From Diplocarpon mali (lineage: Eukaryota > Ascomycota > Leotiomycetes > Helotiales > Drepanopezizaceae), in NCBI GenBank assembly GCA_024741835.1, contig JAENRP010000314.1, positions 1 to 51,874 on the forward strand: 51,874 bases of DNA, read 5' to 3'. Shown here piece by piece: positions 85 to 35,051 of the stretch; the stretch's first letter is position 1; each line of letters starts with the position of its first letter. The position numbers were made by a program, and so were the translations under genes. The notes under the pieces are model-generated. The model was not told the origin of the DNA, ran no database searches, and worked only from the letters and a program-made list of their open reading frames with translations.

Positions 85-554
85 ACTCTTAGGCTAGACT
101 TATAAATAGATTCCTTTAAAGAAAGTATACTCTTCGCCTTAATATAATTAAGCAAGGATAAGGAAAATAGATAGACTCTTAAACTAAGATCGCAAGTGAA
201 ATTCGCGAAAATGACTCTTAAGCTAGGATTATAGGTAGAATGTAATATATCTTTAAAGATGACTCTTAAACTAAGATCATAAGTGAATTTAATAGAAATG
301 ACTTTTAGGCTAAAATTGCAAGTAGATTTTGCAAATTTACTAATAATAACTCTTAAGCTAAAATCGCAAGTGAAATTCGTAGAAATAACTCTTAAGCTAG
401 GACCGCGACTGAACTTCGCAGATTTATTAAAAACGACTCTTAAGCTAAGACTGCAAGTAGATCTTACTATTTCTAGGAAATCGACTCTTAAGCCAAGACT
501 GCAAGTAGATCTTATAGTTTTATTAAAAACAACTCCTAAGCCAGACTTGCAATT
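85..554 (+). repeat. In-frame tandem array of the 23-bp motif, ten copies (element B)
   Basis: Copies start at 85, 175, 214, 262, 301, 349, 388, 436, 484 and 532. Spacings are 90, 39, 48, 39, 48, 39, 48, 48 and 48 bp, all multiples of three. Each copy is 23 bp, of the form ACTC-N15-(G/C)(A/G)AGT, blurred by C-to-T and G-to-A changes. Each is read with ACT as a codon, giving T-x6-V-like peptides. The sister element A has only seven copies in the same place. Confidence 0.9.
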
Positions 555-770
555 GGAAAATAGTAAAACCTTAAACTGCTATTATTATTCCTTTCTAGCT
601 ACTAATAATAAAGTATTAACTAACGATAGGCTACTAAAGCTATTAGAAGTTAAAAGCCTATTAAGGTATTAGCTAATATATAGAAGATTCGCGTATCTAA
701 AGCTAAAGAAATTGAAGGGCCTATATAAGGTCTTAACCTTAAAACAGAAGATCTAAATACTAAAGGATCG

Positions 771-775
771 CCTAG
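771..775. repeat. Target site duplication of element E (left copy)
   Basis: cctag immediately before the E 5' LTR is repeated at 6311-6315 right after the E 3' LTR. Removing E and one copy restores the sequence seen uninterrupted in element A near 10616-10630 (integrase C-x2-C region). Confidence 0.9.
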
Positions 776-1008
776 TGTTGCAGGTATGCCCGTTACATAT
801 TTGTCACATGATCTGTCATATGACACATCATACACATGATATGTCATATGACTTGCCACATGACTTAGTGGCAGCCCTTATTAAATAGCTTGTAGTTAGA
901 GAGCTCTTATGAATCAAGATATCCAATATCGTCGTTTGCACCTCATACTTCTTCGTACCCTCTTCTAATCTACTATCAAGTTTACTATTAGAGAACCTTA
1001 TTACTATA
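776..1008 (+). repeat. 5' LTR of element E
   Basis: 233 bp, matching 6078-6310 base for base apart from C/T and G/A differences. The first 90 bases are crowded with CATATG/TCATATGA-type palindromes. It ends ..ttactata, directly followed by the primer site. Confidence 0.93.
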
Positions 1009-1020
1009 GGTTATAAGCCC
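1009..1020 (+). other. Primer binding site of element E (initiator tRNA-Met type)
   Basis: ggttataagccc directly follows the LTR. It equals the complement of the anticodon stem-loop of initiator tRNA-Met (GGTTATGAGCCC) with one TG-to-TA change. Copia of Drosophila is known to prime from the 5' half of this tRNA. Confidence 0.75.
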
Positions 1021-2457
1021 TATATGCCTATAAATAGCATTCGATAAATTCCATCGATTAGAGTCTCTTTTATAAACGAAAAGGCTGATCGATATTTTAA
1101 GTTTTACTTAACTAACAATATATAATAGCGTTATTTTAATAATAAAACAGTGGCTACTCCCCTTTCGGAGCGCTATGCAATAATCTAAGCTTACGCAAGA
1201 TTCGTCACTATAGCTGAATCATTAGGACTAATAGCTAAGATTACTAGCTTAATTGCTAAAAGTACTCTACTACTTGAATCACCTAATTTTAAAGGGATTG
1301 ATATATAGTACCTTAAACTCGAATTCAATAGTTCATCTCCTTCTCTTCCTCCTCCTCCTTTCGATAACTCTATATATATATATATAAATAAGATATTATT
1401 GTCTTCGGCTGCCTTTAGCCTCTTTAAGTCTTAAAAGCTTAAAGGCGCAAAGGACTATAGCTAGTAGAGGAATAAGGTTTTGAACTTTGCAAAGTCAAAC
1501 GCCTTAACTATATATCTCTATACAAAAGCTAGAATATATGCTTTACCTAAGGTTGACTTATAAGACTATTCTATTATACTTAAGGAAAGGGATAATTAGG
1601 TTAAATAGGAAGCTAAGGAATCTCAAATAAAGCTTACTATTATACTTAATTGCAAACTAGGCCTATTAGCTTATATAAAAGGCGATAAATCTGCCTTAAA
1701 TATATAAGAAGCTTTTTAAAAATAGTATAAAGGATTTAGAATAGTGCTTAAATATAACGCTATATAGACTTATATTACTATTAAATATAATAACTTCAAC
1801 TTACTCAAAGCTTACGTCATCGCCTTTAGACTTTTAATCATTAAATTGAAAGCTTTCGACTCTGCCTCTCCCTTTTACTAATACCCTATTATATTTATTG
1901 CTAGCTATTCCAATAGATAGCCTATTTAGGTAAATCGATAACGCTTTAACCTTCGCTTAGCTATAGCTGCTAGACGAAAATCAAAGATTACGCTTAAAGC
2001 TCTTATTAAAAATATTACTAATAAAGCTCAAGCCTTATAGAGTTTAAAAATGAATAGAACCGTCTTATATAATAATAAATCAGCTAATAAGCTATATTCC
2101 TCTAATTATAAGAAGTCAGAAAATAAGAGAGGTTTCAAAGACTTAAAGAAAAGTACCTCTAGGAATACTACTAACTCCCTTAATTCCCCTAACTCCCTCT
2201 ATCCTTATTATAAGCAATGAGAGCTATACTATAAGGCAGAAGATTGCTTTGCAATTAACAAATCGAAAAGAGAGGCTTAGGAGAAGGATTTAAAGAAGAA
2301 GTACGTATTCTATTACCTTAAAGGTAAGGACGATAAGTCCTTACTATTATTATCAAAAGGTAAGAAGCCTTTTAAGAAGATTCAAAAGGAAGACGAAGAG
2401 CTAGATAATAATCTCTTTAGGCATATTATGCTATTACTAACCCTAGGGCTAATTCTC

Positions 2458-2546
2458 ACTCGCGAGCCGGGCCTAAGAGTCAATTCCTCACTAGGAGGCG
2501 ACTCCTCCCTAAGGCCAATTTCCACTCGCAGGCCGGGCCTAGGAGT
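2458..2546 (-). repeat. Two 23-bp motif copies in element E (2458-2480, 2524-2546)
   Basis: Both copies are in the opposite orientation to the copy at 3961, yet both are still read as ACT-CGC-... with the closing R-V or G-V pair, because the motif is palindromic at its ends. They sit between the zinc knuckle and the protease. The 43 bases between them contain a further GGAG/CTCC inverted repeat. Confidence 0.85.
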
Positions 2547-3960
2547 CAGTTCTTTTACCTCCTACTTTTTATTAAAATTGAGGAATCGTTAGCTATACGA
2601 TATAGGTGCTAGTAAGTACGTTTCTAATAATCTCTCTAAGTTTACCTCTTATACTACTTAAGATAATCTACCCTCCTTAAGTACAATTAATAGATCTATT
2701 TAACCTTTTAGTATTAGCACTTACAAAGTTAATGCACTAAAATCTAATAGAAAGGTATATATTCTTAAGTTAATTAATACTCTTTATATACCTTAATTAC
2801 CTATCTGCCTATACTTAAGTAGTAAACTTAATAAAATCAAAGGCTTCTATCGAAATAGCAAGCTATTCCTATCTAATAAGAAGGAAATTTGCACTATTAA
2901 TAATAATATATATATTAATAAGGAATAGCCTTCTACTAACTCCTCTAGTTATATAAGTGGATATGCTCTCTTAGCTGCTATCGAGAATAGACCTCTTAAT
3001 ATTAAGCTTTGGCACCGTCGATTAGGCTACGCTAGCCTATAAACGGTTAAAAAGACCTAATCTACTATTACTAATATATAGATTAAGGAAATAAAATTAA
3101 AGAAGACGCGAATTTGCGCTCCTTGCGAAAAGGGCAGACCTCTCTAATATATTAATAAACGTTTAGCTTACCCTCGACCTATAAAGGCACTTGACGAGCT
3201 ATACGTTAACGTTATTTATTTAAAGCTAATTGGCCTTAATAGTTATAAATACGCCTCTATCTTCACTTGCCTAGCTATAATAGCTAGATAGGTATAGATA
3301 TATATAAATAAATCTAATGCCTTTAAGGTAAATAAGAAGATAATTAGCCTTTTATAAACTTAGTATAATTATATAATCAAGCGGTAAAGAACTGATAAAG
3401 GCAAGGAGTACTCTCTTATATAGATGCAAATACTTATAGAAAACCTTAGTATAATTTTAAAGGAATCTACTTTATATATACTAAAATAAGATGGTAGATT
3501 GGAATGATCAATTTATACACTAATAGAAAAGTTGCAAATAGCTATAATTGACTAAAATATCCTCTCCTTTCTCTAGCCTTACCTCCTTCTTTTGATAATA
3601 TATATTACTAATCTTATTGCCTTTAATATTCTAAGTGGTAAGACTCTATATAAGGTCTTTTAGGACGATATTAAGCCTAATAAGCCGTATACTCCTTTAG
3701 TTAAGCATCTTCGAGTATTAGGCTATTGCGTCTATATGCTAATCGAGAAAGAAAAGCGAACTTAAAGTAATAAACTCGCTTTAAGAGCAAAGGTAGGTAC
3801 TCTTATCGGATTTAATAATAGAAGTATCTATCAGATTTATATGCTATTGCAAATAGGTAAAAAGATTATTCGATCGTCTTATATTCGATTCGATAAAGAT
3901 AGCTTGATTATAGAGCCATACCTTAAGGAAAACTCCTATTCTTAATTAAGGGGTGATTTC

Positions 3961-3983
3961 ACTCCTGGGCCGGGACCGCGAGT
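3961..3983 (+). repeat. 23-bp motif copy, GC-intact (element E, between integrase and RT)
   Basis: A perfect ACTC-N15-GAGT unit with almost no RIP damage, encoding T-P-G-P-G-P-R-V. It sits in a linker before the basic stretch R-K-R-G-R-P-P-G. It keeps the polyprotein phase. Confidence 0.9.
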
Positions 3984-5796
3984 CAATTCTTCTGATTCAG
4001 GAGAAGCTAATGAAGCTGCGCTTCCAACTCTAAGAAAGAGAGGAAGACCTCCTGGTTTAAAGAATAAGGCTTACCCTTAGCCTTCCGAGAAGAGAGCTAC
4101 TCGCTCTACTGCTCTTAGATTCAAAGCTAATAACTCTAATGATAAGGAAGCCTATTTAAGCGCCTTCTATATAGCCTTACTCGACTTTCTATACTTAAAT
4201 AACCTAAAAACAGTCGAATAAGCCCTCTCTTATGCTAATGCCGATAAATGGCGATCTGCGATCAACTTTAAATATAATTCCCTTACTTATAAGAATATAT
4301 AAGTGATAGTGAAACGCTTAGAACTCTTTAAAGATAATAGAGTACTTAGATTAAGGCTTATCTTTAAAATAAAAAGAGACTAAAACGGGGAAATCTCTTA
4401 ATAGAAGGTTAGATTTATTATATAAGGCTATATATAATAATAAGGTCGAGATTATAACTAAACCTTTGCTAGCGTTTGCAAATCTGCCGTTTAAAAGATT
4501 GCAATTGCGCTTGCAGCTCTTTACAACTTTGAGCTAGATCAGTTTAATATTAAGATAGCTTTCCTTAATTTAGAAGCTGACTCTAATATTTATATTAAGT
4601 TACCTCTTAAATACACTTAAGATAAGGTCGTTCTTTTACCTTAAGACTACTGTCTTAAGCTTCTTAAGGCCTTATATAGCTTAAAGTAATCTCTACAACT
4701 ATAATAAGAAAAGCTATAGTTCAAGCTGTAAAAGCTTGATTTTCAACCTTTTAATACTAACAATTGTATATATATCAACCGCGCCTCTCGGATTCTTATT
4801 ATTACCTATATCGACGACTTCCTTATAGTAGCTAAGAAAGGTGATATATATAAGAAGTTTAAGAGAGATCTTCGCAACCTCTTTAAGATTATAGGTAGCG
4901 AACTGGCTAACTACTTCTTAAGAGTTTATATAGTTAGAGATTGATAAAATAGAACGATCTTGCTTTATTAAGACGCTTATATTAATAAGGTTCTTAAACG
5001 TTTTTATATAACTAATTATAAGAGCGTACCTACGCCTTTTGCCAATGGCTATAAAGTTTATATAGTCAAATTTAAAGGCTAAGCCACTTTATAGGAAGTA
5101 AAGCTATACTAAGAGATCTGCGGTTCTTTATAATACCTTGCGCACTATATGCGTTAGGATATACTATACTACTGCTCTATTCTTAGCAAACTCCTTACTA
5201 ACCCTTTACTATAATATATAGTAGCTTTAAAATGAGTTTTATAATACTTGTAAGGAATGCGATTCTATTATACTACCTTTAGAAGTAAAACAACTGACTT
5301 AGAGCTTTAGAAATTGCATAGCTACTGCGATTCTAACTAGGTAGGTAATAGAGGAAGTAGAGCCTCTTATTCTAAGGCCGTCTTCTTCCTTAATAATAGC
5401 ATAATTACCGCCTCTTCTAAGCGATAGACTATTATTACTCTCTTATTTATAGAAGTAGAGTATATCGCTATATATAAATTCATATAAGAGGCCTTTTAAA
5501 TACGCTAGGTACTTAAGGAAATAGGCTATAGCAGCGATGATGCTACTAAAGTCGAGATGATCTGCAATAACCAAAGAGCCCTTTATCTTATCGAAAACCC
5601 CGAATATTATTAGAGAATAAAGCATATTAATATCAAGTTCTATTATATTCGGCAAGAGCTTCGGAAAGGCCATTTAGACCTTTAGTATACAAATACTAAA
5701 GATAATGCCGCTAACGGTCTTACTAAGAGCTTAAATAGCTCCAACTACGCCGCCTTTATCAAATTGTTAAATATAAAGGTTCTACACCTTGATTAA

Positions 5797-6077
5797 GGGG
5801 TGATTTTTTTTTATACCTCTATTATAAGGTGATTTTTTTTTTTTTATACTTCTATTAAGAGGTGATTTTTTTTTTTACTCCCGGGCCGGGCCCGCGAGTT
5901 GATTTTGACTTTTTTAAGGGGTGGATTTCCTACTCTAAAGTAGAGCGCGCTAGCGAATTCTACTCTATTTCCTATATCTGCAGGTTGATTTTTCATACGA
6001 AACTATAGATTATAATCAAAGTTATAACATTATATATATTGCTAGCGAGTACCTTTAAAGGTCTCCCTAAAGGGGTA
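5797..6077 (+). repeat. 3' untranslated region of E with three ggtga-T(n) units and a 23-bp motif
   Basis: Three near-repeats of ggtga followed by 9 to 13 T lie between 5798 and 5876. The last runs straight into a GC-intact 23-bp motif at 5877-5899. A purine tract (taaaggggta) directly precedes the 3' LTR and is the likely plus-strand primer. No reading frame is seen here. Confidence 0.75.
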
Positions 6078-6310: not shown

Positions 6311-6315
6311 CCTAG

Positions 6316-7945
6316 TATACCGAATTTGCAAGCTAATAAAACTTCAAAATCGGACGCGAATTAAGCTTAGTCTATAGAAAGATTCGATACTAGCGCTAAT
6401 ATCTATTAATACTATTAAACTATTTACAACTTTAATTAAAGGAAATAATTGGTTTTTTTAAATAGTAGATAACTCTACTTAATAGATATAGACTATTTGC
6501 GCTAAGACTAAATTTAAGCTTATAGAAAAGCTGGAAACTTGGAAAGTAATAAAGGAACGCTAGACTTAGTTAAAGCTAATAGCTATTAGGTCTAATAACG
6601 TATTAGAGATTAAGGTAAAGCTAGATAAATAGGCAAAATAAGGAGTTTATTATAAACTAATTATAATATATAAAGGTTCCTATTAGAATAGCATTACTAA
6701 GCGAAGCATTTAGCAAGTAGAAACTGACTATCGCGCTCTATTGCAAGATGCTAACCTACTATTAGAATTCTAGGACCTTGCAGTTAAGGCAGATATATAC
6801 TTATAAAATAGAATAGGTAGTGGACTAATAGTTAATAGCACTTAAATATTGCTATATAAGGCATATTTCAAATAGAAACTAAGCTTAAACTATATCTATA
6901 TCTTTAAAAGCGTTTGCTACTCCTATATTAGCCTAAAGTCCTAGCCCGCGGGTATAAAGAGTAAGAAGCTAATAGACTAAGGTAAAGAGTATATATTTAT
7001 TAAGTATATTAAATAGATAATAAAGCAATAGATAATATATGCGCTAGATCTAAGGCGAGTAATTATATCTTTTATAATTGAGTTCGACGAATTTTAAAAT
7101 AAGGGAGAGCTATCCTTAAAGCTCTATATACCTAGAGATTCGTAAAGTATACTATTCAATAGTAATACTATTAAGCCAAACTAATAACCCCTTTCTCTTA
7201 GCTTAAGTATATTAAGCGCACCTGCTGATCGACGACTTGCTAATCGCCTAAAGGCCGAATAGACTATTCCTATTATCTGCAAACTACCTAAAGTATAGAA
7301 CAACTTCGATATTATTATCCCTTTAATTAAAGCACCTATAGTAAAGGATATTCCTAAAATAGGTATAAGTAATAATAAGCCTTTATTATCGGAAAGCGGT
7401 TCCTTAGATAATAAGCCTATAGAACCTATAGCTGAACCTACGCCTTTAAAGAGGAATAGAGACTTAGAACCGGAAGATACCTTAGACAAATATAAGTTTA
7501 AGCATATCTAGGCTATAATAGCGCATAGGATCTATAAGCTTAAACTTTAATAGAGCTTTAATAAAGATAATGCATTCCTAGCCACTAAGGAGATAATGAA
7601 AATCTCTCTTCTAAAGACGTATAATAAAGCTATTAACGATCTAGAGAATAGAGCAATATAGAATAAAGCAATTTAAAAGGAGATAAGCTCTCTTATTATA
7701 AATAATATATAAATAGAGGAACTAATGCCAAAGGATATAAACCTAGTTTTAATAAAGTGGGTCTTTATAATCAAGATATATGCAGATAGGACCTTAAAAC
7801 ATTATAAAGCAAGGCTTATAGCTAAGGGCTTCTCCTAATAGTATGGAGAAGACTACTTCGATACGTTCGCACTAATAGTTCGTATAAATACCCTTTGCAT
7901 ATTTATAGTAATAGTAGCTACTAAGAACCTTAAATGCAAATAGTA
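6316..7945 (+). pseudogene. Copia B polyprotein fragment: integrase core to start of RT
   Basis: Aligns with 10626-12250 of element A. It holds the C-x2-C end of the integrase zinc domain (now degraded), the catalytic core, the integrase/RT linker and the first RT motif (K-A-R-L-I-A-K-G near 7805-7835). It stops at the tagta target of element A in the middle of RT. Many CAA/CAG/TGG codons are now stops. Confidence 0.85.
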
Positions 7946-8546: not shown

Positions 8547-11500
8547 ATGGCTTCCGATTCCGATCGAAATACTAGGCCTAGAGACCTCTAACTCTCTTGA
8601 AAGAACTGGCAACAATGGTTCGACGATTTAGAGCTTTACTTTAAGAGCAAAGGCATTAAAATAGCGATTCAAAAGACACTTATTAAATACGCGAGAATAG
8701 CCTCCTATACTCCCTCTACCGATTTGTCTACTTCTACTTTAATAGCTAATACAACTGCTAAGGATTTGCCAGATATACTAAATAAGCTTAGCCTAAGAGC
8801 TTTAGTAGATAATAATTGAGAATCCCAAAGGCAGATTTTAAATATAGAAAAGGAGAAGGAGTATAGGCTGGCCTTAGCCAAATGCAAGCTTAAGATCAAC
8901 AGAGGTTTAAGCGACGAAGACCGAGATTTTGTTCGAATTCACAATGACGCGAAGATAAGATAGGATACTTTAAAGGTAAAATACTCTTAGACAATTGCCC
9001 TCGACACCTAGTATCTACTATAGCAGATCACTTCATTTTAGTATAGAAAAGATAAAGATAGCAAGGATATAGATATAAATATAGACTCTACTTAGTTTAT
9101 ACTACGTAAAGCGAGGAGGAGAGTAAAAGCCGTAGATCCTAGGATAGCTATGACTTTTAGGGAAACTTAGCTTTTTAGTTTCCTACTTAATAGCCTCCCT
9201 CTTAAGTTCGCTATTGTAAAACAATCTCTTCTTATTTAACCTAACCTTAAGATCTACGAGAAGATCGACCTCCTTCGAACTGTTGAGCAAGACCTCAAAG
9301 GATACTCTGAATCGGCAAATGCCGCGTTATAGGGTAAAGACAAGCCTAAAAAGAGGAAGGAGCGCGGGACGAGCCCTTGAGCTTATCGGGGATGCTACTT
9401 CTATAACGGTACTTATAATATTACTAATTGTGAAGTTAGAAGGCAACTGATTAATATAGTCGCCAGCTTTAATATTAAGAAGCAATCGAAGTAGAAGTTA
9501 AGAAGTAAACTGCCCTTATCCTACCGAAGGCCGCAACTATTAAGGAAAGGCAAAGGAAAAGGCTATTTAGCTAGAACTTTAGCAGACACCTTTAATAATA
9601 ATAGTAGGTTATCTAAACCTGAATCCACTTCTAATGATTTAAATAATAATTATAATAAAGATGCTTACGTTTTAAAAGCCGATCTTTATAAGATCCTTGA
9701 ATCCAATTGGTATAGTAATACTAATTGTATAGCATATATAATTGATAAATCCTACCTATTTAAAGGCCTGCTTACTAAAATAAAAAGGCGCTCTATTAAG
9801 GTTGGTAGTAGAAGGTTATATACAGACTTGATAGGTATAGTAGAGATGAATATCGCTAGCGTTTCTTTCCTTTTGCAAAATGTTCTCCTTATGCCTAGCT
9901 TAGGTATCAATCTCTTATCTAACTGCAAGATCTATATAGAGTTGAATTATATAGGAGTTTTTAATAATCAATTTATATAGTTTATAAATAACAATTATAA
10001 AGTGATCTTTAAAGTTAAAATTAAAGATAGACTTTATATTATCTTAAAGGTGATATTATAGAAATTGACTCTTAGGCCGGACCTACGAGTAGGTTCCTTT
10101 AAGGAAAGTGCACTCTCTGCCCTAATACAATTGAGCAAGGATAAGGAGAATAGATGGACTCTTAAGCTGGGATCGCGAGTAAAATTCGCGAAAATGACTC
10201 CTAAGCTAGGACTATAGGTGGATTGCAAAGTGTCTTCGAAAATGACTCTTAAGCTAGGATCATAAGTGAATTTGGTAGAAATGACTCCTGGGCTAGGACT
10301 GCGAGTGGATTCTGCAAATTCCGGGAAATCGACTCCTAAGCTAGGACTGCGAGTAGATCTCGCGATTTTATTAAAAACGACTCCTAAGCCGGGCTCTCAA
10401 TTGGAAAATAGTAAAACCTCGAACTGCTATTACTAGTCCTTTCTAGCTGCCGACGATAAAGTATCGACTGACGATAGGCTACTAAAGCTATTAGAAACCG
10501 AAAGCCTATTAAGGTATTAGCTAATGCATAGAAGATTCGCGCATCTAAGACCAGAGAAATTAAGGGGCCTGCATAAGGTCTTGACCCTAAAACGGAAGAT
10601 CTAAGTACTAAAGGATCGCCTGGTGTGCCGAATTTGTAAGCTAATAAAACTTCGAAATCGGACGCGAACTAAGCTCAGTCTATAGAAAGATTCGATACTA
10701 GCGCTAATATCTATTAATACTACCGGACCATTTACGACCTTAATCAAAGGAAATAATTAGTTTTCTTAAATAGTAGATAATTCTACTTAGTAGATATAGA
10801 CTATTTGCGCTAGGACTAAATTTAAGCTTATAGAAAAGCTGGAAACTTGGAAAGTGATAGAGGAACGCTAGACCTAGTTAAAGCTAATGGCTATTAGGTC
10901 TGATAACGCATTAGAGATTAGGGCAAAACTTAATAAATAGGCAAAATAAGGAGTTTGTTATAAACTAACTATAATATACAAAGGTTCCTATTAGAATAGC
11001 ATCGCCGAGCGAAGCATTTAGCAAGTAGAGACTAACTATCGCGCTCTACTGCGAGATGCTGACCTACCACTGGAATTCTAAGACCTTGCGATTAAGGCAG
11101 ACGTATACTTGCGAAATAGAATAGGTAATAGACTAATAGTTAATAGCACCCGAATATCGCTATATAAGGCATATTTCAAACAGAAACCAAGCCTGGACTA
11201 TATCTGCGTCTTTAGAAGCGTCTGCTACTCCTATATTAGCCCAAAGTCCTAGCCCGCGGGTATAAAGAGCAAGAAGCTAATAGACCGAGGTAGAGAGTAT
11301 ATATTTATTAAGTATATTAAACAGATAATAAAGCAATAGATAGTATACGCGCTAGACCTAAGGCAAGTAATCACATCCTCAGTAGTTAAGTTCGATAAAT
11401 CTCGAAATAGGAGGGAGCTATCCTTAAAGCTCTATATACCTAGAGATTCGCAAGGTATACCACTTAATAGTAATACTATTAAGCCGAACTAATAACCCCT

Positions 11501-13499
11501 CTCTCTAAGCTCAGGTACATCAAGCGCACCCGCTGATTAACGACCTATTAGTTACCCAAAGACCGAATAGACTATTCCTATCGTCCGCGAACTGCCTAAA
11601 GTATAGAACAACTTTAATATTATTATCCCTTTAATTAAAGCACCTATAGTAAAGAATGTTCCTGAAACAGGTATAAGTAACAATAAGCCTCTACTACTAG
11701 AAAGCAGTTCCCCAGATGATAAGCCTATAGAACCTATAGCTGAACCTACGCCTTTAAAGAGGAATAGAGACCTAAAACCAGAAGATACCTTAGACGAACG
11801 CAAGTCTAAGCGTATCTAAGCTATAATAGCGCATAGGATCTACGAGCTCGAACTTCAATAGAGCTTAGATAAAGATAATACGTTCCTAGCCGCTAAGGGG
11901 ATAATGAAAATCTCTTTTCTAAAGATATATAATAAAGCTGTTAACGATTTAAAGAATAGAGCAGTATAAAGTAAGGCAATCTAAGAGGAGATAAGCTCTC
12001 TTATTGCAAATAGCATATAGATAGAGGAACCGACGCTAAAGGACGTGAACCTAGTATTAACAAAGTAGGTCTTTACAATTAAGATATATGCAGATAGAAC
12101 CCTAAAGCGTTATAAGGCAAGGCTTATAGCTAAGGGCTTCTCCTAACAGTATAAAGAAGACTACTTCGACACGTTCGCGCCGATAGTTCGCATAGACACC
12201 CTTCGCATATTCATAGCAATAGTAGCCGCTAAGGACCTTAAATGCAGATAGTACGATATTAAAAATGCATTTACTAAAGCAATTATAAAAGAACGGATTT
12301 TTCTCTCCTAACCTAATAGTATTCCTATACGCGCTAGCCACTCTCTTTGTATACTCCGCAGTATCTACAGGCTTAAACAATCAGCCTATAATTAAAACCT
12401 CTTATATAGCTCTGCTCTAATAGAAATGGGATTCATTTAGAGCCTAGCTAACCCTTGTCTGTTTACCTATGCTAAGCGTAGAATTAAGTTGCTACTATAT
12501 ATTGATGATATTGCTATAGCTGCGAAAATAACCACTCAATTGGATTAGTTCTTTATAATAATTCGGAAACGTTTTAATACTAAGGATCTAAAGGGAATTT
12601 ATAAGATCCTTAGCATCTGCGTTATAAGGAACCGCTTTACTTAAGAACTCTAGTTGGATCAAGAGTAGTATATTAAGAAGATCCTAGACCGAATAGGACT
12701 CTCCACTTATGCTCCTAACTTTAAGCTAAAGCATACTCCAATCGAAGGAAAGTATAATAAGTTAAAGCCTGCTAATAAAAATAAGCAAAGAGGAGATCTA
12801 AAGAAGTACTAATAGGATATTAGAGCGATTATATATACTATAGTATATATAAGACCAGATATCGCCTTTATTACTAGGCAACTTAGTCAGAACTTAAAGG
12901 ATCTGACGATTTGATATAAGAATGCAGTCAAGCGACTTAAAAGGTACCTTCGATCGACAATCATATAAAAGGTGAGATATAGACTAACGAAATATATAAG
13001 CGCAAAGCTTAAGGTATATACCGATTCCGACTGGGCAAATATAAAAGGTTGGAAAAGTATATCTAGAAGCGTAGTAGTACTATATAGCAGACCTATGTTA
13101 TAAGGAAGTAGGAAGCAGAAATCAATAGCTATCGCAAGCACTAAGGCCGAATATATATTAATATTATCAAATTGCAAGTAAGGATTATAGATCGCCTAAG
13201 TTCTAAAAGATATAGGTTTCGCTAAGTATATTAGACGAGATAGGAACTGTATTAATCTTTAAGCAGATAATACAAGGGCGATTGCACTTGTAAAGAATCC
13301 ACACTTGCATAAGCAATCGAAACATATCGATATTACCTATTACTTTATCCGCGACCTTATTGTAAAGAACAAGTTATCAATCACCTATATCCTAATCGAT
13401 CAAATAGTAGCAGATGGATTTACAAAGCCACTAGAGACGGTTGCAAAGTTCAAAGCGTTTAAAGATATACTAGGGTTGCAGAAGACAGTAGGGGCTTAG
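8547..13499 (+). pseudogene. Gag-Pol polyprotein of Copia element A (RIP-inactivated, 1650 codons plus stop)
   Basis: The frame runs from ATG at 8547 (M-A-S-D-S-D-R) to TAG at 13497-13499 with no shift. Landmarks in phase: a zinc knuckle remnant at about 9380-9440; the protease region at about 9700-9960; the seven-unit motif array at 10068-10402; the integrase zinc domain with M-H-R-R-F-A-H at 10523-10543 and C-R-I-C at 10626-10637; RT motif K-A-R-L-I-A-K-G at about 12110 and box Y-I-D-D at 12498-12509; and an RNase H box Y-T-D-S-D-W-A at about 13018-13040. The last 65 codons (13305-13499) are free of stops. Internal stops are nearly all TAA or TAG where Gln or Trp is expected. Confidence 0.92.
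10068..10402 (+). repeat. In-frame array of the 23-bp motif, seven copies (element A)
   Basis: Copies start at 10068, 10158, 10197, 10245, 10284, 10332 and 10380 (spacings 90, 39, 48, 39, 48, 48). All are 23 bp and all are in phase with the polyprotein (10068 minus 8547 is divisible by three). They encode T-(L/P)-(G/K/R)-x-x-(L/S)-R-V peptides between protease and integrase. The last copy has lost its GAGT end. Confidence 0.92.
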
Positions 13500-13513
13500 C
13501 AGGCTTAAGGACG

Positions 13514-13602
13514 ACTCCTAGGCCCGCCCCGCGAGTTAGGTCACGTGGTCTTATAAAGGAACATCTTTTAGGAAATTTGACTCCTGGTCCCACCCCGCGA
13601 GT
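13514..13602 (+). repeat. Two 23-bp motif copies in the 3' UTR of element A (13514-13536, 13580-13602)
   Basis: Both are GC-rich and well preserved, 66 bp apart, downstream of the polyprotein stop. The matching part of B (34762-34912) has three copies. Confidence 0.9.
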
Positions 13603-13740
13603 AGGATTAGTGATTTCAATAGAGGTTGCTATTGATTAATTGTTTTTGATTTAGAGAGATACTTAAGAGTTGGATTGGCGCAAAAGGATAGTTATTATTT
13701 TCCCGACTATAGGTCAATTGGAGTAAGGTCTGAGTAAGGG

Positions 13741-15176: not shown

Positions 15177-15528
15177 TATATTTTAAATAATAAAAGTAGT
15201 AGCCCCTACTACTATTAGTAAAGAATATAAAATAATATAAGTTAAGGTAATAGTATATTAATTATTAGCAAACCCTTAAGTGCGAGAAAACTAATATATT
15301 AAAAGGCTTAAACTAGGGCTATATTATTATTAAAGGTAAAAGAAAAAGAAAAAAAAGAAGAGTTTTNNNNNNNNNNNNNNNNNNNNNNNNNNNNNNNNNN
15401 NNNNNNNNNNNNNNNNNATACGCTTTTTACTTATAGACCGGGCCTAGGAGTTAAAAAACGAAACTAGCAAAACAAACAAATAAGCTATAGAGTTGTAAAA
15501 ACAATTAAAAATAGTATTAACCTAAATA
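15177..15528. other. 3' non-coding region of C, with assembly gap and one motif copy
   Basis: No frame is visible. 15340-15366 is an A/G-rich run leading into 51 N at 15367-15417. A 23-bp motif lies at 15429-15451. The first 170 bases are repeated nearly exactly after the LTR at 51707, so they belong to the element. Confidence 0.8.
15367..15417. other. Assembly gap (51 N)
   Basis: A run of N next to a purine-rich low-complexity tract. The true length is unknown. Confidence 0.99.
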
Positions 15529-19041: not shown

Positions 19042-19456
19042 TTGTGAATTCTTTAAAGGCATATTACTTATAAAAGATAGGGAGTATAAATAAGAAAGTT
19101 TAATAAGGTATAAGAATTAAAAGGGCATATAAGCTGCAATAGGTTTGCTATATATATATTAAGGAAATTGGACTTTTTATTTATTATTTAAGGAAAGTAA
19201 TAGGAATACTATAATTAAAGGCTAATATTAAGAATATAAAATAAGTTAAAGTAGGCAAGAATTTAGGATGATCTTAAAAGATCTATATTTTAAATAATAA
19301 AAGAGGCGACCTTATTGAAAATGTAAAAACAAGGATTATAAGAAGGTAGGACAATTAATAGGCTAGGAAATTATTTAATATTCCTATCTGCGTTCTTTGG
19401 ATATTTTAAAAATAATAACTTAAGGTTATGATTCATTAGGTATTTTAATATTCTTT
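19042..19456. other. Spacer between integrase and the extra ORF of element C
   Basis: AT-rich, with no reading frame followed on either strand. It could hold a promoter or splice signals for the downstream ORF, but I see no convincing motif. A 23-bp motif lies at its integrase-side edge, 19457-19479. Confidence 0.5.
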
Positions 19457-22400
19457 ACTTATAGGACCGGCTTATAAGTCAAGTTGGAAAAATCTTAGTC
19501 TTTGTCTAAGGGTTCAAAATTGCTTATATTGCCATCGGTTCCTATAGAAGATTCGGAGGTTATATTAATTTCTAATTCGTCTTTTAAAGGGAATAAGGTC
19601 TAGTCGCGTTAATAAAAGCGCTTTAGTCAGTTGGCTGCGAAGGTTCCTTTAATATTAATTCTATTAAGTTCCTAAAGAGAATAGTATCCCTTTTCTTTCT
19701 ACTTAGACTTAACTTTAAATAGACTAAGCTATTAATAGTCAAGTTTAGTATTTGCTAATATATTAATACTTCTTATAATATTATAGACTAGGACGAGATT
19801 ATCTTTTTAAATAGGATGCGTTTTAAGTACTTTAAAAGCAGCTTATACTTCCTTAGCTTTTTCCTAATATCGTTTCTTTTATAAAATGATTTCCTTTATA
19901 TCTATATCTTAAAGCTTAAGTTGTTAGTATCTTATTATAAGCAAATCGGAACGGTTTTAAATTTGACTATAATCGAATAATCTTTAAATAGGCTATTAGA
20001 ATTCAAGAGGAAGCTATGCCTCTTTGCTATAGATAAGGAAAAATAGTATAACTCCAGTTAGTTTATAGATTATCATTTGATAAGTAAAGAGTATTTTATA
20101 AAAGTATTTTATCTAATTTTTAAATCCTTTATAAGTAACTTTAGATAGCCTATTAAGAATGTTGCAATATCCTTACTCTACTATTCTATTAGCTTTTAAA
20201 TTATACGCTAAGATTTGAACCTATTTAATACTATATTTTTATAAAAAAGCTTGAACTACTCCTTTATTTTTAAGGCCTTTATTAATAGTTAGTCTATTAA
20301 AAAGTCTATAGCAATAGACTATATCTTCTTAAAGGAACTTTTTAATAGATTCAAAGTTAGCAGATCTTAAAGGTTGCCCTTTAGGCTATCCTAATAGGTC
20401 TTCCTTTATTAAAATAAAATATATAATCCTATTTTCAATTGTTAATACTTATATAATATTAAGACTGACTTTATAAAAAAGGCTTAATAGCTAGGTTAGG
20501 AATAGGGGATTCTCTTTATAATTAGGTTTTCGTTTCTAATAGGAGATGCAACTTTTCACAAAGGCTTTGCAGTCTTTAAAAGAACCCTTTTAAAAGAATT
20601 TCCTTAAGAGTTGGTAGTAGGTAGACTTAGCTCTTTAGTAGCCAGTTTCCTTATAAATATCCTAGATAGCCTTAGCTTATAGTTTATTATCATTTAAATA
20701 GAGCTATATAAGAAATGAGTTATCGCTCCTTTTAAATAATCGCTATTCTTATATTAGATAAATCAGAGCTTTAGCTTTAAACTTCTGAAAATCCTTAAGA
20801 GGAACTGTCTTTAGTCGTTTAAGCGTAATTAAAAATTTCGCGATTTCTTTAGAGTCACTTAAGTAGTTAGGTAATAAAATTCTCTCATTTGACTTGCAGG
20901 CTAGGACTAGGAGTCGAGTCCCTTTAAGGCGATATATTAATAAATAACTAACTTCGTTCTTTACCTACTTATTAATATCTATTTCATCTTCTTTAATCAA
21001 ATTAGAAGGGTAGGGGCAAGTTCTTCTTAAAAGGCTATCGGTAGTAGTGTTTTTTATTCTTAAAATGTATTTGACTTCAAAGTCCATTAGTCTTATTTAA
21101 GTAATCTATTTTATTAGCAAGGCTTCTAATAGGTCGCTTACAGCTTTATTCAATTATTCTACTAATACTTTAGCATTAGTTTTAAGGATAAAGTAAGTAC
21201 TATAAAGGTTGCTTCTTATCTTTTTCATTGCCTTTAAGGCGCCTTTATATTCCTATTTAATAGTATTATACTTTATCTCTACTAGATTCTAAAGACTACT
21301 TTTAAAGCGAGCTAGATGTCTTTTCTATTAGCTATTAGCTTATTAAAGGATAGCACCCTATCCGATTAAGCTTGCGTCAACTATTAGTATAATTAGCCTA
21401 GCATTAGCTCTATAGTCTATTTTGATTAGATATAGCGCTTTAAGCAATGCTTGCTTTAGTTGTTTTATAGCCTTTATTTAAGGTTCCTCTTATTAAAACT
21501 CAGCCCTTTTCCGAAATAAAGCGTAAATAGGTACTGCCTTTTTAATAAAATCTTTGATTTAAATGCAATAGTATACTATAATGCTAATAAACGCGCAGGC
21601 TTTTGCCATATCGTTATACCTCTTCCATTTATTGATTTTAAGTACTTTAGCCCTTTAAGGACTTCGGCTATTGGAATTAGTAATAAAACTAATAATTTCT
21701 ATCGATAGAAGATAGTATTATAACTTCGGACCAACTATTGCTCTTACCCTTTTAAATTATATAAGCACCTAATTTAAGTTCTAAATGTGTTCTATTATAA
21801 ATTATTATATATTAAAGAGAACTTCTTTATAGTTATAGAATGATCTTAATCCTTTTACTCTTATATTATCTATATAAGGGAGCGTAATATTAGGTATATA
21901 ATCTACTAGTATCTTATAGATTACTTAGACAAATTGAGCAATCGAATTTATAGCTCTTTAAGGTAATCTTATCATCTAAAGTAGCTTAAGAGGGGTTTAA
22001 ATTGCTATTATATCTTTTAATTTAATATTAAGAATAAATTGGTCGTATTTAAAGAAGAAGTTAATAAGAGAGCTGCAGGTTAATCCTGCGAATTTATTTA
22101 AGAACTTATCTATATTTAAAGGAATATTAGCGTCCTTAATAGTTACTCGGTTCATCTCTACTACTACTATTATTAATCTATAAGTTCCCTTCTCTTTCTT
22201 AATAACTAAGAACCATTTGTTCTTATAAAGGCTATTACAGAACTTAAGAATACCTTGCTTTAGCCTATCCTTTAATATTTCGATTACCTTTTCCTAAAGA
22301 GCTTTAGGGACCTTAAATGTTTTCTCTTACTAGGCTTTATAAGGTATTATCTTAATCTTAATATAAGGCGTAACCTCTTTTTAAATCTGGCTAAGTTCTG

Positions 22401-24005
22401 TCTAATCAAAAGTCAAAGCATCCTCTCGATTTATTAAGGTTTTATAAAGTAGTTCGCATTCTTACTCTATTAAGTCTTCTCTAATTTTCAATATATTAAA
22501 ACGTTCTTTTATTAGCCGATATCCGATAGGTTTATTAGAAAATCTGCCTATAATAAACTTATCGAATTTGCTACCTAGCTTTAGAGGTCGAAGCTTCTTA
22601 TCTTATTTAAACCAATTATCTAATCCTTTAAGCTTTGAGCTATTAGAGATTCCCTAATCTACTAGTTGTACTTTATTAGCCTTGCTTTTATATATAGTTT
22701 AAATATTAATTAATACTATATTTCTCTACTTCTTTCCTTTTTTATCAAATCCTATAAAACGGTCCGAATTTTCCTTTTTAAAAATAAATAAAAGATTTTC
22801 TAAGTTATTAATTTAAAGTGTATAGATAGAAATATTATTAGTAATTTTATTGTTTTTCACTTACAGATCTAGCCTATAAGTGGTTTTTAGGTTTTTTAAA
22901 ATGATTAATAAACTATCGAAATTTATAAAACGAACCCTCTTCTTTACTTTATTTTTCTTTTTTTTAATTATTAATCTAATAAAACGCTAATTGTACTATT
23001 TTTCAAAATTCCAGATTTGACTCTTAGTCTAGGACTATAAGTTAAATCTCTATTATTCAAAATCGGCAAACTCACCTTTCTTTCGCTATAACTCCTTGCT
23101 AAGTGCCTTCTTTTACTAGTATTAAGCCTAGCCCTTATACTAGCTAATTGTTTCCTAAAACCTTATTTTAAAATTCGGCTATATCTCTTACGATAACTAT
23201 TTATCCTTTTAAAGATCGATCTATATTTTAAAGATTAGCTTTTATAAGACCTTCTTTAGGATAGTTAAATATTAGCTAAGATTTTAAAATAAAGGGCATT
23301 TTTAAAAGAATATCATTTGAAGAATTCTCTATTATTAGAAAGTTAGTATAATTAACAATTCTTCTGACTTTAACCTTTATATTTTTCACCTATCTATTAA
23401 AATTGTATTTCGATTTAGAGATAGTCGAATAAATAAGGAGTCGATCGCTAACAATTATCAATTAAGCTATTTCTACCACTTTTCTAATTATTATATTAAC
23501 TTCTGAACTATAATCGATTAAAGCTTTTGCTTTAACTAATTCTTCTATTAAATAAATAATAATAAGGCTTTTTATTACAATTGCTAAACAATTTCAATTA
23601 ATATTCCAAGATATTAAAGCTATTGCTATAATATTGTAGTATCTTTAGGTTCCTTTATTTTTTAAAATTTAAAGATATTTAATTAAGGCTAAGTGCTTCT
23701 TAGAGTTCTTTTATATTATAATTTCCATTTCCTTATTATTATTCAAATCTTTAAAGGCAACTAGGATATGCTTTCCTAGCACTTTATCAAAGCGTTTAAT
23801 TAAACTAAATAGGTCTTTAAATGTAAGGTTAATTTACTAAGCTATAATATTCTCTATAGCTTTCTCTATTATAATTAAACTAGCGTATTTATTAACGAAT
23901 TTTTCCCGTTTTAATATCTGTCTCTTTCGCTTAAGGTCAGAGGTCCGCGTAATAACTTCAACTTCTTAATCTTCAAGCTTAAAGCTATCTTTATCTACTA
24001 TATCT
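19457..24005 (-). pseudogene. Pol of Gypsy element C: protease, RT, RNase H, integrase (RIP-inactivated)
   Basis: Read right to left. The protease core I-D-Y-S-S-E-V-N-I-I (from D-[ST]-G) is at about 23488-23518, in phase with gag. The RT begins at about 22300 (K-N-K-W-F-L-V-I-K-K) with the catalytic box P-Y-I-D-N at 21865-21876 (was D-D), and RNase H is at about 21000-21650. The integrase has a decayed zinc domain near 20600, a core with A-N-x-I-V-E at about 20190, and a tail near 19600 (G-T-F-A-A-N-W-L-K-R-F-Y). RT is in a different phase from protease, so either a programmed shift or an indel lies between 23500 and 22300. 23-bp motifs lie at 23020, 22859, 20892 and 19457. Confidence 0.85.
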
Positions 24006-24010
24006 CTAAT

Positions 24011-24208: not shown

Positions 24209-24559
24209 ACCCCTTAGTTAGGCGATGCTCTTAGAATCGCTTAGCTATATAGATAAAATAAAAGAAAAAATAGCAGTTATAAGGAAAAGAGGCTCTATCT
24301 TATATGCCGCCCTTTTAAAGGTCGTTCCTTTTAGAATAAGAAGGGTTGCTATAGGCAATAAGCGCGCTTAGGAATCTTTGCGATTCTATACTAGTGCTCT
24401 ATTAGGCTTCTTATAAAGTATTTCTATCGCAGAGGTTCTCCTTCCCTTCTTTTAAAAACAACCCTCTTTTATTATTTAAAAATATTATCTTTATACTAAA
24501 AATTTTTAAATATAAAAGGAACTCCCGCTTATTATAGCCTTAGCTGCCCTTGTAAAGTA

Positions 24560-25520: not shown

Positions 25521-25639
25521 ATATTACCTATTTTATATTTTTAAAAAAGGAGAGCTTTTGCAGTACGCTTTATAAGAGAAAATAAATAAACGTGACTATA
25601 AGAGAGTAAGAGCTTATAAGTATAAGTCTCTTAGTAATA

Positions 25640-31300: not shown

Positions 31301-31409
31301 CCTTTAAGTTATTATAAATACTTGAAAAGTCGGTTAGGAGCTTAAAGGGCCCTTTAGCTGGTTGCATGCGAAGAGAAAGCATATTAAAATGCTTATAGGG
31401 CTTATAACT

Positions 31410-31607
31410 ATAGTGCGGTCGGCTAGAGGGCCTTTATTAGGTCGCTTAAAAGGCTTGCTAATATAGATAAAGATGATTAATTATATTATTATCTAATATA
31501 TATATAGTAAGGAGACTTCGGAAAGAAAAGGGAGAGTCTATGACTTAGCAGGAGTCACGTAGAGGGTCTCCAGAATAAGTGGAGACTCCGCCCATTCTGC
31601 ACGACAT
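31410..31607 (-). repeat. 5' LTR of element G (right end)
   Basis: 198 bp. The terminal 90 bases are nearly free of RIP and contain a 7-bp inverted repeat GTCTCCA-N7-TGGAGAC. It is followed by the ctaat duplication. Confidence 0.9.
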
Positions 31608-33955
31608 CTAATTAATTCATTTGCTATATCAGCTTTATCCTTATCTACTGCGGTTTTAGATTATTAAGTATCTTTTAGCGTTTGGACTCTATATTGAGAT
31701 TCTTAAGTTATATGCGTTAATTTCTGGACTTTGGCTGGTTTTATTAGTATTAAAGGAGTGGTAGATCTAGAAGGACGCTAAGTATTCTAAGGGTTTCTAA
31801 ATATAGAAGTAGTATTAATATCAGTAGATACATTATTATTAACCTATCCTAAGATAGAGATACCTTTAACTTCTATAGCTATTTAATTAGAAGCTAGGTC
31901 CTTAAGAACTCCCTTAGGTAGGTTACCAGTTAGACTAGTATATATATAAGTTGGAATTTTAGCATTTATATCTATAATATACTATCGTTCGACTAAATTC
32001 TTATCCTATTTTATACTATATATTATTATTCGAATAGTCTATAACTATAAGCGATTCTAATGCTTTTTAATAAGGATAGCTTTTAGCCTAAGATCTCTAA
32101 TACAAAGCATCCTATACTTATTAATATATATAACCCTAGTATTAATAAAACGATAGAAAAGAGGGCAATCGTTGCGATACTTATATAAAGCGCAGTTAGG
32201 TTCTTTATTATTGCAAAAGTTGCAAATTAATCGTCTTCTATTGCCATTCCCTTAATACTTTATAGTATTAATATTAGCAAAGTGCTAATTAGGATTAATT
32301 TCTCCTTCTTCAATCAACTATTAAGTTCTTATATTAGCTAGTTGTTCCGAATGACAAGAAGCAAGAGTCTAGTAATAGGAACTACTAGGTTAGCTTATAA
32401 TAGCTGAGTTTTATTTATTATTAAATTAGGGAATATACTATTTTTCTTATAAGAGATTATTAATTCTAGTTTCTAAGCTTTAGATTTAGAGTTTTGCAAA
32501 TTAGGTCTTAAGTTCCTTAATTCTAGGGTTGGATCTCACTCTTAAGTTAGGCCTATAAGTGAAAGGTATAATTACTAGGTTCTTCTTTGCCTCTTTTATA
32601 ACTTCTAGCGCTTTTGAGTATTCTTAGACCAGACTCTTAAGGTCTTTAGTATAAGAGGGAGTAGGGGCTTTTTCCTATTTTATAGCATTAATAGTTCTTT
32701 TACTAAGATCTGATTTTAAAGTAAAGGCTGAGAATTCCTTAAATAAGGCGAAGGTTATAGGATCTTACTTATTAATCTTAAAATGCTTAATAATCTTATT
32801 TTAAAGGCCAATAGGTAATCTAAGTAAGAAAAGGCGGCCTCTTTCAACTTTACTAAGTATTTTTTAACTAATTAAGGTATTTGATATATAAGTAAAAGTC
32901 CGATAGTAGTTCTTAAGTTCCTTAAGAGTATAAGTGATCAGAACAAATTCCTTTAAGAAAGCTAGAGTATTGCGAATCTACTATCTATCAAATTCTCGGA
33001 ATTCAGACTTAAGAGCCTTAATAAGGAGTTCTTATAAACTATACGTTTTCTATTTAAGGAGGGATTTAATAATATCTTTACTTATATAGTTATAATAGCA
33101 AAGAAGTTAGGAAATCATATCCTCTTATATAATACTAAAATTGTAATAAGTTTCCTTATATTGCTTAAGGAAATCAGTAATATTAGCGCTTATAAAGTAA
33201 GGAGCGCTAGGGGAATTAAGGAAGGGAAAGTGATTAGTAATAGCCCTAAATGCAGCTATTATCGTTTTATACTAACCGTCTAAGTTAATAGAATCTATAA
33301 GGGGTAAAGGGGAAGCTTTGATATTACGAGATTGATTGCTAAAAGGAGTACTTCGAAATTCAAAAGGGCTTAAAGAACGTTTAGAATCCGAGTCAATTTT
33401 AAAGTAATTAAAACGAGTTTGAAAAGATTTAAACAAAGGGTTAATAAAAAGTTTAAAATTATTATTATTTTTAATATTTTCTAATATTAATATTAAAAAA
33501 GTAGGTAGTAGTCTTAAGTTATTTAAGAACGTCTTTTTATCCTCTTACTTATAGGCTAAGCCTAGGAGTAGAATTCCAGATTCTATTAAAAGTTTAATCT
33601 AAATTTGCTAAAAGATTTTAAGTAAGTGCTAAATAGCTAATAAAAGCGTTATAATTAATTGTAATAAGATAAGGTTTACTTAATCTAAGACTAATTTCTA
33701 AAATAAGGTTTATATCTAAGATTCTTCTTAGCCTTTAGGCTAATTCCTATTAGTCCTTAGAATAAAGGGGTCTTTAAAGATAATTCTAAAGCAATTTTTA
33801 AAGTTCTATTAAGCTAAAGCAGCTGAATTATTAGATTCGGATTTCTAAAGATTTTAAAGAGGCACTTCTAATTGGAGTTTACACTTAGTATTACTTAAGT
33901 ACTCGAAACTACTGCTATTTGAGATTGCTATTATAGGGTTTGCTAAACTTTTCAT
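31608..33955 (-). pseudogene. Gag of Gypsy element C, continuing into protease after element G
   Basis: Starts at ATG 33955 (M-K-S-L-A-N-P-I-I) and stays in phase with the protease core at 23515 once G and one ctaat are removed (2838 nt, divisible by three). A Cys-rich nucleocapsid motif (C-N-F-C..C-x-L-Y..D-C) lies at about 32165-32224. Two 23-bp motifs lie inside: 32538-32560, in phase with the start, and 33547-33569, out of phase by simple counting, so a small indel lies nearby or that copy was not translated the same way. The upstream 286 bp to the LTR are leader. Confidence 0.78.
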
Positions 33956-34241
33956 ATTAGGAAGCTGAAAATTCTGAAAATCTTAAAGTTAAGGAAGAAA
34001 ATAAGGGTTTTCGAAGCAGAGCCGAAAAGGGAAAATCTAAGGTTATTAATAGTTGCTAAATGAAAATCGATAGTTCTAAGTAATTAAGCGATTAAGGATA
34101 AGGTTTTTAAAGTTAATTAAAATGCTATAAGTGTTTTAAAGACATATTTCAAAGGCCGGTCTTTTATCTATAAATCAAGAGATTAATAAGGTTGTATAGG
34201 GACGGAAATCTTAAGAAATCGGTCCTTGCGTAGGTTACTAA
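33956..34241 (-). other. Leader and primer-site region of element C
   Basis: Between gag and the 5' LTR, with no reading frame. Directly inside the LTR the minus strand reads ttagtaacctacgc, compatible with a TGG-starting primer site after TG-to-TA change. I cannot name the tRNA. Confidence 0.5.
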
Positions 34242-34487
34242 TATAAAACAGAAGGGAGACAATATAAGAATAGGCCTAAGGGAAGACCTAAAAACAAGAG
34301 GAAGAAGTACTATAAGCAAGCTCTTTTAGATAAGATATTAGGAATAAGTCCTAAGTATAGGGTATATTTAGTACTTATAGCGACGCGCGCTATTTCTATA
34401 TATAGAAGATGGCCCTTTTATCCTCCTACCGTCCTGCGCCGATTATATGATATATGTCACAAGACCTATCCATCTCAGGTCTTCATA
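34242..34487 (-). repeat. 5' LTR of element C (right end)
   Basis: 246 bp. Minus-strand TATA-like ggataaaagggcc near 34410-34425. Less RIP-damaged at its outer end. Followed by atag and the remainder of B. Confidence 0.92.
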
Positions 34488-34491
34488 ATAG

Positions 34492-35051
34492 GAACTATAT
34501 TAATCTTTAAGTAGATAATATAAAGGCAATTACACTTATAAAGAATCTATACTTATATAAGTGATCGAAATATATTAATATTACCTATTACTTTATTTAT
34601 AACCTTATTATAAAAAATAAGTTATTAATTACCTATATCCTAATTGATCAAATAGTAGCAAATGGATTTATAAAGCTACTAAAGACGATTGCAAAGTTTA
34701 AAGCATTTAAAGATATACTAAGGTTATAAAAGATAATAAGGGCTTAATAAGCTTAAGGATAACTCTTAGGCCCGCCCTGCGAATTAGATTATATAGTTTT
34801 ATAAAAGAAAGTTTTTTTAAATCGACTCTTAGGCCTAGACTATAAGTTAAGTTATATAGTCTTATAAAGGAACGCTTTTAGGAAAATTGACTCCTGGTCC
34901 TACCCTGCGAGTAGAGTTTGGTAATTTCAATAGAAGTTATTCTTAATTGATTGTTTTTAATTTAGAAAGATATTTAAAAGTTGGATTAGCGTAAAAGGAT
35001 AGTTATTATTTTCCTAACTATAAGTCAATTAGAGTAAGGTCTAAGTAAGGG
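34492..35051 (+). pseudogene. Copia B RNase H end and 3' UTR
   Basis: Aligns with 13230-13740 of element A. The end of the polyprotein reaches the same C-terminal region near 34745. Three 23-bp motif copies follow in the 3' UTR (34762-34784, 34825-34847, 34890-34912), where A has two. The extra copy comes with about 60 bp of flanking sequence that looks like a duplicate of the neighbouring unit. Confidence 0.88.

What the first reader, a model, noticed from the sequence alone, without database searches (positions are those of the whole stretch)
85..34912. A 23-bp palindromic mini-element (ACTC-N15-GAGT) scattered through three unrelated retrotransposon families
I count about 35 copies: E (2458, 2524, 3961, 5877), A (10068-10402 array, 13514, 13580), B (85-554 array, 34762, 34825, 34890) and Gypsy C (15429, 15923, 16808, 18194, 19457, 20892, 22859, 23020, 32538, 33547). 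Every one is exactly 23 bp, with ACT(C/T) at one end and its complement at the other and a GC-rich core in undamaged copies. Copia and Gypsy share no ancestry at these sites, so the unit must have spread between elements. I noticed no copies in G, K or L. It resembles mobile GC clusters or a very small hairpin element, but I know no described unit like it.
Basis: seen in the sequence. Interest (0 to 1): 0.88.

Follow-up and report, generated by a model that had tools for sequence, protein, structure and literature searches.

The report
Palindromic insert in fungal retrotransposon genes
A fungal genome carries about a thousand intact copies of one 35-base near-palindrome at fixed places inside unrelated jumping-gene families, mostly in step with their protein code; it looks like a tiny in-frame DNA insert, though its own movement has not been shown.

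Summary
The finding is real and larger than reported. A frequency model finds 38 units in the window (0 to 0.4 in shuffles). The strict core ACTCSYRGKCYNRGMCYRSGAGT occurs 988 times genome-wide against 0 for the reversed control. The unit is longer than 23 bp: 985 of 988 also have a pyrimidine at -2 and a purine at +2, and in 26 chosen contexts conservation runs to about +/-6, a 35-bp imperfect palindrome. Other Copia and Gypsy families lack them in the stretches read. Within a family the sites are shared, so most copies spread with the retrotransposon; unit number at a site changes, mostly in 45-bp in-frame steps. In coding regions 16 of 18 contexts read in one codon phase (16 of 21 on the harshest count), in both orientations. 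No empty site, target-site duplication or arm covariation was found. Best reading: a frame-locked palindromic coding mini-element working like Rickettsia palindromic elements. Independent mobility is not shown. A symmetric protein-binding site is the main rival. The fungus is probably Diplocarpon coronariae.

The parts
79..560 (+).
   Evidence: PWM scan; spacings 90, 39 and 48, all multiples of 3; homologous to 9984-10626
2452..2486 (-). Unit in Copia E, before a protease-like start (core 2458-2480); strand = orientation of the ACTCC..CGAGT form
   Evidence: annotated D. coronariae fragments P0004/P0005 read through it in the ACT frame
2518..2552 (-). Second unit of the same E linker (core 2524-2546)
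   Evidence: the linker between the two varies by 6 or 12 bp among copies
3955..3989 (+). Unit in E just upstream of RT (core 3961-3983)
   Evidence: same phase as the RT match at 4222; 9 of 9 units of this site in four other copies in RT phase
5871..5905 (+). Unit in E downstream of RT, near the 3' end (core 5877-5899), perhaps 3' UTR
   Evidence: not in RT phase; in five other copies of the site a stop lies just upstream in the ACT phase
6925..6959 (.). Weak unit in A' (core 6931)
   Evidence: PWM score 17, begins GCC
10062..10408 (+). Array of 7 units in Copia A (core starts 10068,10158,10197,10245,10284,10332,10380)
   Evidence: all starts 0 mod 3, same frame as RT 12039-12707
11233..11267 (.). 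Weak unit in A between array and RT (core 11239)
   Evidence: PWM score 19; not in RT phase
13508..13608 (+). Two units near the 3' end of A (cores 13514, 13580)
   Evidence: not in RT phase; homologous to the 34762-34890 group
15423..15457 (.). Unit in C near its LTR (core 15429)
   Evidence: same site in L011 and L005
15917..15951 (.). Unit in C (core 15923)
   Evidence: 40 of 40 scored matches keep +23 bp at this site
16802..16836 (.). Unit in C (core 16808)
18188..18222 (.). Unit in C (core 18194)
19451..19485 (.). Unit in C (core 19457); decayed but present in L011
20886..20920 (.). Unit in C (core 20892); one of the two C units out of the main phase
22853..22887 (.). Unit in C (core 22859)
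23014..23048 (.). Unit in C (core 23020)
32532..32566 (.). Unit in C (core 32538)
33541..33575 (.). Unit in C (core 33547); the other C unit out of the main phase
34756..34918 (+). Three units at the 3' end of A' (cores 34762,34825,34890)
   Evidence: A has two at the homologous place
12039..12707 (+). RT (PF07727) of Copia A, sets the reading frame
   Evidence: 114 bits

Best explanation
It is an imperfect palindrome of about 35 bp (RAWTYN-ACTC-N15-GAGT-NRAWTY). It behaves as a palindromic coding mini-element carried inside LTR-retrotransposon polyprotein genes. In the codon phase seen in 16 of 18 coding contexts it encodes about 12 residues, such as D-L-T-P-G-P-G-P-R-V-N-S, or T-R-x-P-G-x-G-V in the other orientation, placed in linkers between domains where insertions are tolerated. 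Shown: presence at places with unlike flanks in Copia and Gypsy families, phase bias, both orientations, sites shared by the copies of a family, and in-frame change of unit number at a site. Inferred: each dispersed site began by copying an existing unit (35 bp plus about one base, 12 codons) into a new place, for example by template switching between co-packaged RNAs or by templated repair, after which the family spread it. The enzyme or mechanism is unknown.
For: 988 strict copies against 0 reversed; 985 of 988 with the -2/+2 letters; +2 purine in 52 of 52 half-sites of 26 chosen contexts. Phase: A array in RT frame, E upstream pair, E unit before RT 9 of 9 in four copies, Gypsy pol, Gypsy gag side, and C 11 of 13 against the frame with fewest stops. 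Both orientations in frame. At one Gypsy site the 40 scored matches have 23 bp (12), 68 (22), 77 (1), 113 (4) or 158 (1) between the flanks, that is mostly one to four units in 45-bp steps, seen directly in L077 and L078. Families without units coexist with them. Flanks of the A array, A 3' group, E pair, E 3961, E 5877 and the C sites fall into separate clusters at E<=1e-12.
Against: No empty site found (C site 40 of 40 with the unit, Gypsy site 40 of 40 with one or more unit lengths, E site seven of seven loci read). No target-site duplication (direct-repeat excess p = 0.08). No partner enzyme was looked for or seen. Copies of a family share the sites, so no recent movement is visible. One of four A-family copies checked (L007) has its array out of phase with its RT, perhaps from decay. 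Two of 13 C units are out of phase. The weak A unit 11239 and the 3' units of A and E are out of RT phase; I took the 3' ones as non-coding, partly for that reason.
Confidence: 0.5

Rival explanations
1. A two-fold symmetric binding site for a host or element protein (insulator, silencing, targeting or packaging factor) that retrotransposons need in several copies. DNA recognition, not movement, keeps the palindrome.
For: Symmetry of conservation without base-pair covariation fits double-stranded recognition; many sites per element (14 in a 15.8-kb C copy); a well kept core at E 5877, which is not in RT phase; conserved flank letters.
Against: Over 30 bits of specificity (my estimate) is long for one site. 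Codon-phase bias (16 of 18) is not expected of a binding site. Several families in the same genome have none in the stretches read.
Confidence: 0.27
2. Selection on the encoded peptide: a Pro/Gly-rich hinge or a polyprotein cleavage signal between domains, with the DNA palindrome incidental.
For: One codon phase; locations before the protease-like start, just upstream of RT, and between RT and the integrase core; five of the seven third-codon positions are the more variable ones.
Against: The third-codon T of ACT is kept in 22 of 26 contexts and the A of CGA/GGA in 25 of 26; the two orientations give different residues at two places; copies persist out of RT phase.
Confidence: 0.13
3. Ordinary shared descent: all units derive from one ancestral element and the flanks have simply diverged.
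For: Within each family the sites are shared and unit number changes in place.
Against: Sites lie at different places of Copia and Gypsy genes; 17 to 23 flank clusters depending on stringency; 14 different places in one element.
Confidence: 0.06
4. Chance or RIP artefact.
For: RIP makes repeats look alike and can account for much C/T and G/A variation within the unit.
Against: Shuffles and reversed-pattern controls give almost none; the little decayed E copy L085 keeps two full cores.
Confidence: 0.01

Closest known systems
Rickettsia palindromic elements (RPE)
   Same: Palindromic DNA inserted in frame in unrelated protein genes, adding a peptide
   Different: RPEs are about 150 bp and bacterial (passages of PMC10969869; empty sites recalled); here 35 bp, fungal, in retrotransposon genes, no empty site found
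PARCEL repeats (palindromic amphipathic repeat coding elements)
   Same: Coding repeats with dyad symmetry, tandem copy-number change, linked to mobile elements
   Different: PARCELs are 25-residue tandem amphipathic domains, often of membrane proteins (abstract of PMC2996958)
Yeast mitochondrial GC clusters
   Same: Short GC-rich palindromes scattered in AT-rich DNA
   Different: Mitochondrial, 42-nt example, with putative target duplication and presence/absence variation (abstract, opening text and one section of PMC4478555)
Bacterial REP sequences
   Same: 20-40 bp palindromic repeats in high copy
   Different: Extragenic and prokaryotic (start of abstract of PMC3733652 in a search listing)

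Membership tests
Rickettsia palindromic elements | palindromic repeat inside unrelated protein-coding genes, read in frame | tested here: met
   16 of 18 coding contexts in one phase; only retrotransposon genes were seen
Rickettsia palindromic elements | element length about 100-150 bp | tested here: not met
   unit is about 35 bp
Rickettsia palindromic elements | sequence homology to an RPE family | not tested
   no RPE sequence was compared
Rickettsia palindromic elements | homologous genes without the insert (empty sites) | tested here: inconclusive
   none in 40 of 40 C-site matches, 40 of 40 Gypsy-site matches and seven of seven E loci read; sister families too diverged
Mitochondrial GC clusters | short GC-rich palindrome in AT-rich DNA | tested here: met
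Mitochondrial GC clusters | target-site duplication | tested here: not met
   p=0.08 against shuffled flank pairing, 26 contexts
Mitochondrial GC clusters | located in mitochondrial DNA | tested here: not met
   units lie in LTR elements on many contigs, the longest 560 kb
MITE | target duplication at the ends of an inverted-repeat element | tested here: not met
PARCEL | 25-residue amphipathic tandem domains | tested here: not met
   12-codon unit, Pro/Gly rich

The most novel reading that the evidence does not exclude
A nuclear, frame-locked selfish palindrome of only 35 bp that lives in retrotransposon polyproteins, passed between Copia and Ty3 families of one fungus by copying, reads safely in frame in either orientation, and then rides the retrotransposons to a thousand or more copies: a parasite of parasites.
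Probability: 0.33. Interest if true: 0.86.

Novelty: new variant of a known kind. Interest (0 to 1): 0.62.

Why it matters
As far as I know, palindromic inserts that sit in frame in coding genes are described mainly from Rickettsia, and mobile mini-palindromes mainly from organelles and bacteria. A nuclear fungal case shared by Copia and Ty3 elements would show that a few dozen bases can spread between unrelated retrotransposons and be tolerated, or used, as protein linkers. It also gives a clear test system for how such palindromes are copied.

Tried and rejected
Hairpin selected as RNA or single-stranded DNA: rejected for lack of covariation. Over 26 contexts no variable pair shows clear excess pairing (9/15 is the nearest, p = 0.052), and 5/19 avoids pairing (5 of 26, 11.7 expected). 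Among 45 distinct undamaged units 5/19 is C.C in 40, G.C in 5, C.G in 0. Target duplication: direct-repeat excess p = 0.08, inverted p = 0.78. Empty sites; one short E match (C297, 190 bases for 200) still held a unit when read. Pfam on open pieces gave nothing for 7 of 10, 9 of 10 and 7 of 10. Protein search of one C piece scored none of 60 candidates at E<=0.001; that piece was read on the strand opposite to C's protease piece. Paper searches for a described unit of this kind showed none that I recognised in the listings; this is not proof that none is in print. Exact-pattern scans of the collections needed more fixed bases and were dropped, so presence in other genomes was not tested. The first flank clustering (17 clusters, one of 87) lumped arrays and AT-rich flanks; stricter cut-offs gave 21 and 23. 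The search tool's note says that this genome gives no file, so a genome-wide phase count was not possible.
Full report
CHECK. The 21 coordinates that I looked up all carry the unit, two with a decayed end. With ACT[CT]-Nk-[AG]AGT the window has 35 matches at k=15 and 2 to 15 at every other k from 5 to 30; six of the 35 do not otherwise fit the unit. A symmetric frequency table built from the units finds 38 in the window at score >=12, with 0.4 in five first-order shuffles (0 at score 14). In the window plus L001-L024 it finds 140 at score 14 against 0.2 in shuffles (L025-L034 were left out). In the own genome (49.4 Mb, 676 contigs, some stretches masked) ACTC-N15-GAGT occurs 3306 times against 476 for the reversed pattern. 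The strict form occurs 988 times against 0.

SIZE OF THE UNIT. Adding only Y at -2 and R at +2 keeps 985 of 988; by my reckoning about a quarter would be expected if these letters were free. In the window, with its decayed units, 36 of 38 have each letter. In 26 contexts that I picked, 14 of them from one C copy and some of them neighbours, +2 is a purine in 52 of 52 half-sites and conservation fades after +6. The unit is therefore about 35 bp. It is oriented: positions 5 and 19 are C.C (or G.G on the other strand) in 40 of 45 distinct undamaged units. The pyrimidine/purine variation inside is what RIP or C deamination could leave. The little decayed E copy L085 (GC 0.46) has ACTCCCGGTCCGGGACCGCGAGT and ACTCCCGGGCCGGGACCGCGAGT.

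WHERE IT SITS. A and B are thus one family. A has RT at 12039-12707. C looks Ty3/Gypsy-like with its protein genes on the minus strand: a less decayed 15.8-kb copy on another contig has an aspartyl protease piece there (Pfam Asp_protease_2, E=5e-7, over the cut-off) and a weak integrase piece (E=0.01, under it). That copy has 14 units. The window copy has 10; the other four lie in a 3.8-kb part that it lacks. Another Gypsy family outside the window has units upstream of pol (gag side) and between RT and the integrase core. Of 12 Copia RT regions fetched, the four of the E family have units and the other eight have none; L035 (Copia) and L036 (Gypsy) have none in 4.5 and 4.0 kb. Of five 10-kb samples with GC 0.48-0.59, four have no unit and one (L015) a single weak match; two AT-rich samples (L021, L023) also have none, and two samples were mostly masked.

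FAMILY HISTORY. In C copies the units occupy the same places; at the place of W_19457, L011 has a decayed remnant. At the 15923 site all 40 scored matches keep exactly 23 extra bases relative to the joined flanks. At the Gypsy pol site, 12 matches have 23 bases between the flanks and 28 have 68 (22), 77 (1), 113 (4) or 158 (1), that is mostly two to four units in 45-bp steps, seen directly in L077 and L078. In E, 11 of 11 aligned copies have both upstream units, and seven of seven fetched loci of the 3961 site have one or more, four in L080. Zero was never seen. Only the best 40 of 174 to 239 candidates were scored in each search, so rare empty sites could be missed.

READING FRAME. Contexts with a frame from homology or annotation: A array (all 7 units in RT frame in the window; also in L024 and L010, not in L007). 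E upstream pair (C207: unit to RT 1917 bases, 3 x 639; Diplocarpon fragments P0004 and P0005 read through both units into a protease-like start). E unit before RT (9 of 9 units in L085, L086, L092 and L094; window 3961 against 4222). Gypsy pol (L008, L012). Gypsy gag side (both units in one 116-aa open frame of L012; the annotated relative P0002 has TTNPGPRV there). In the C copy the frame with fewest stops lies on the minus strand in each third, clearly in the first (70 against 110 stops), narrowly in the others (63 against 75, 48 against 50), and 11 of 13 units are in it: 7 of 7, 3 of 4, 1 of 2. The 14th, at 846, lies outside these ranges, and the first third has no recognised protein, so that its coding status is unproven. 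In total 16 of 18; binomial against one third 1.7e-6, not adjusted for dependence. Left out: the weak unit 11239 and the 3' units of A and E, all out of RT phase. Counting 11239 gives 16 of 19 (7e-6); counting also the 3' groups of A and E gives 16 of 21 (7e-5). Units in undamaged form have no stop in any frame (from the sequence), so stop avoidance alone does not explain the bias. Both orientations occur in frame (TPGPGPRV-like and TRxPGLGV-like peptides).

DNA OR PEPTIDE. The third-codon T of ACT is kept in 22 of 26 contexts and the A of CGA/GGA in 25 of 26, and the unit at E 5877, out of RT phase, keeps one of the best cores in the window. This points to DNA-level descent or constraint. On the other side, the other five third-codon positions (6, 9, 12, 15, 18) are among the variable ones, so some peptide constraint is possible too.

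ORGANISM. The matches of two unit-bearing pieces were all Diplocarpon coronariae proteins, 3 of 3 and 2 of 2. A genome paper (PMC11527701, passages) gives assemblies of about 50-54 Mb with about 20% Copia and 6% Ty3; 'palindrom' occurs 0 times in its main text. That species or a close relative is therefore likely.

VERDICT. 'Spread between elements' is likely, but 'mobile' is unproven. It works most like an in-frame palindromic insert (RPE-like) and is not a member of the RPE, PARCEL, GC-cluster or MITE families by the features tested.

Noticed in passing
L072+L073 (C12:227500-244000); window 15417-24000: C is a very long Ty3-type element (15.8 kb, about 242-bp LTRs). About 7 kb beyond its weak integrase-like piece has a low-stop frame on the same strand (70 stops in 2,367 codons); a 145-aa piece read on the opposite strand had no Pfam hit and no homologue.
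   Followed up: partly
L085, linker before RT: In a little decayed Copia E copy the units are followed by TPRKRGRPPSSKNK, which resembles an AT-hook or nuclear signal (motif name recalled).
   Followed up: no
window 24010-31598: Nested element K with 190-bp end repeats (91% identical) and no units.
   Followed up: no
window 38295-48675: Large inverted repeats (86% and 84% arms) with Gypsy pol matches on both strands, no units.
   Followed up: no
window; spacer scan: ACT[CT]-N20-[AG]AGT is also above background (15 in window, 36 in 200 kb of samples); not explained.
   Followed up: no
window 6931 and 11239: A weaker relative beginning GCCYAAAGTCCTAGCC at the homologous place in both A copies: about half of it fits the unit.
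   Followed up: no
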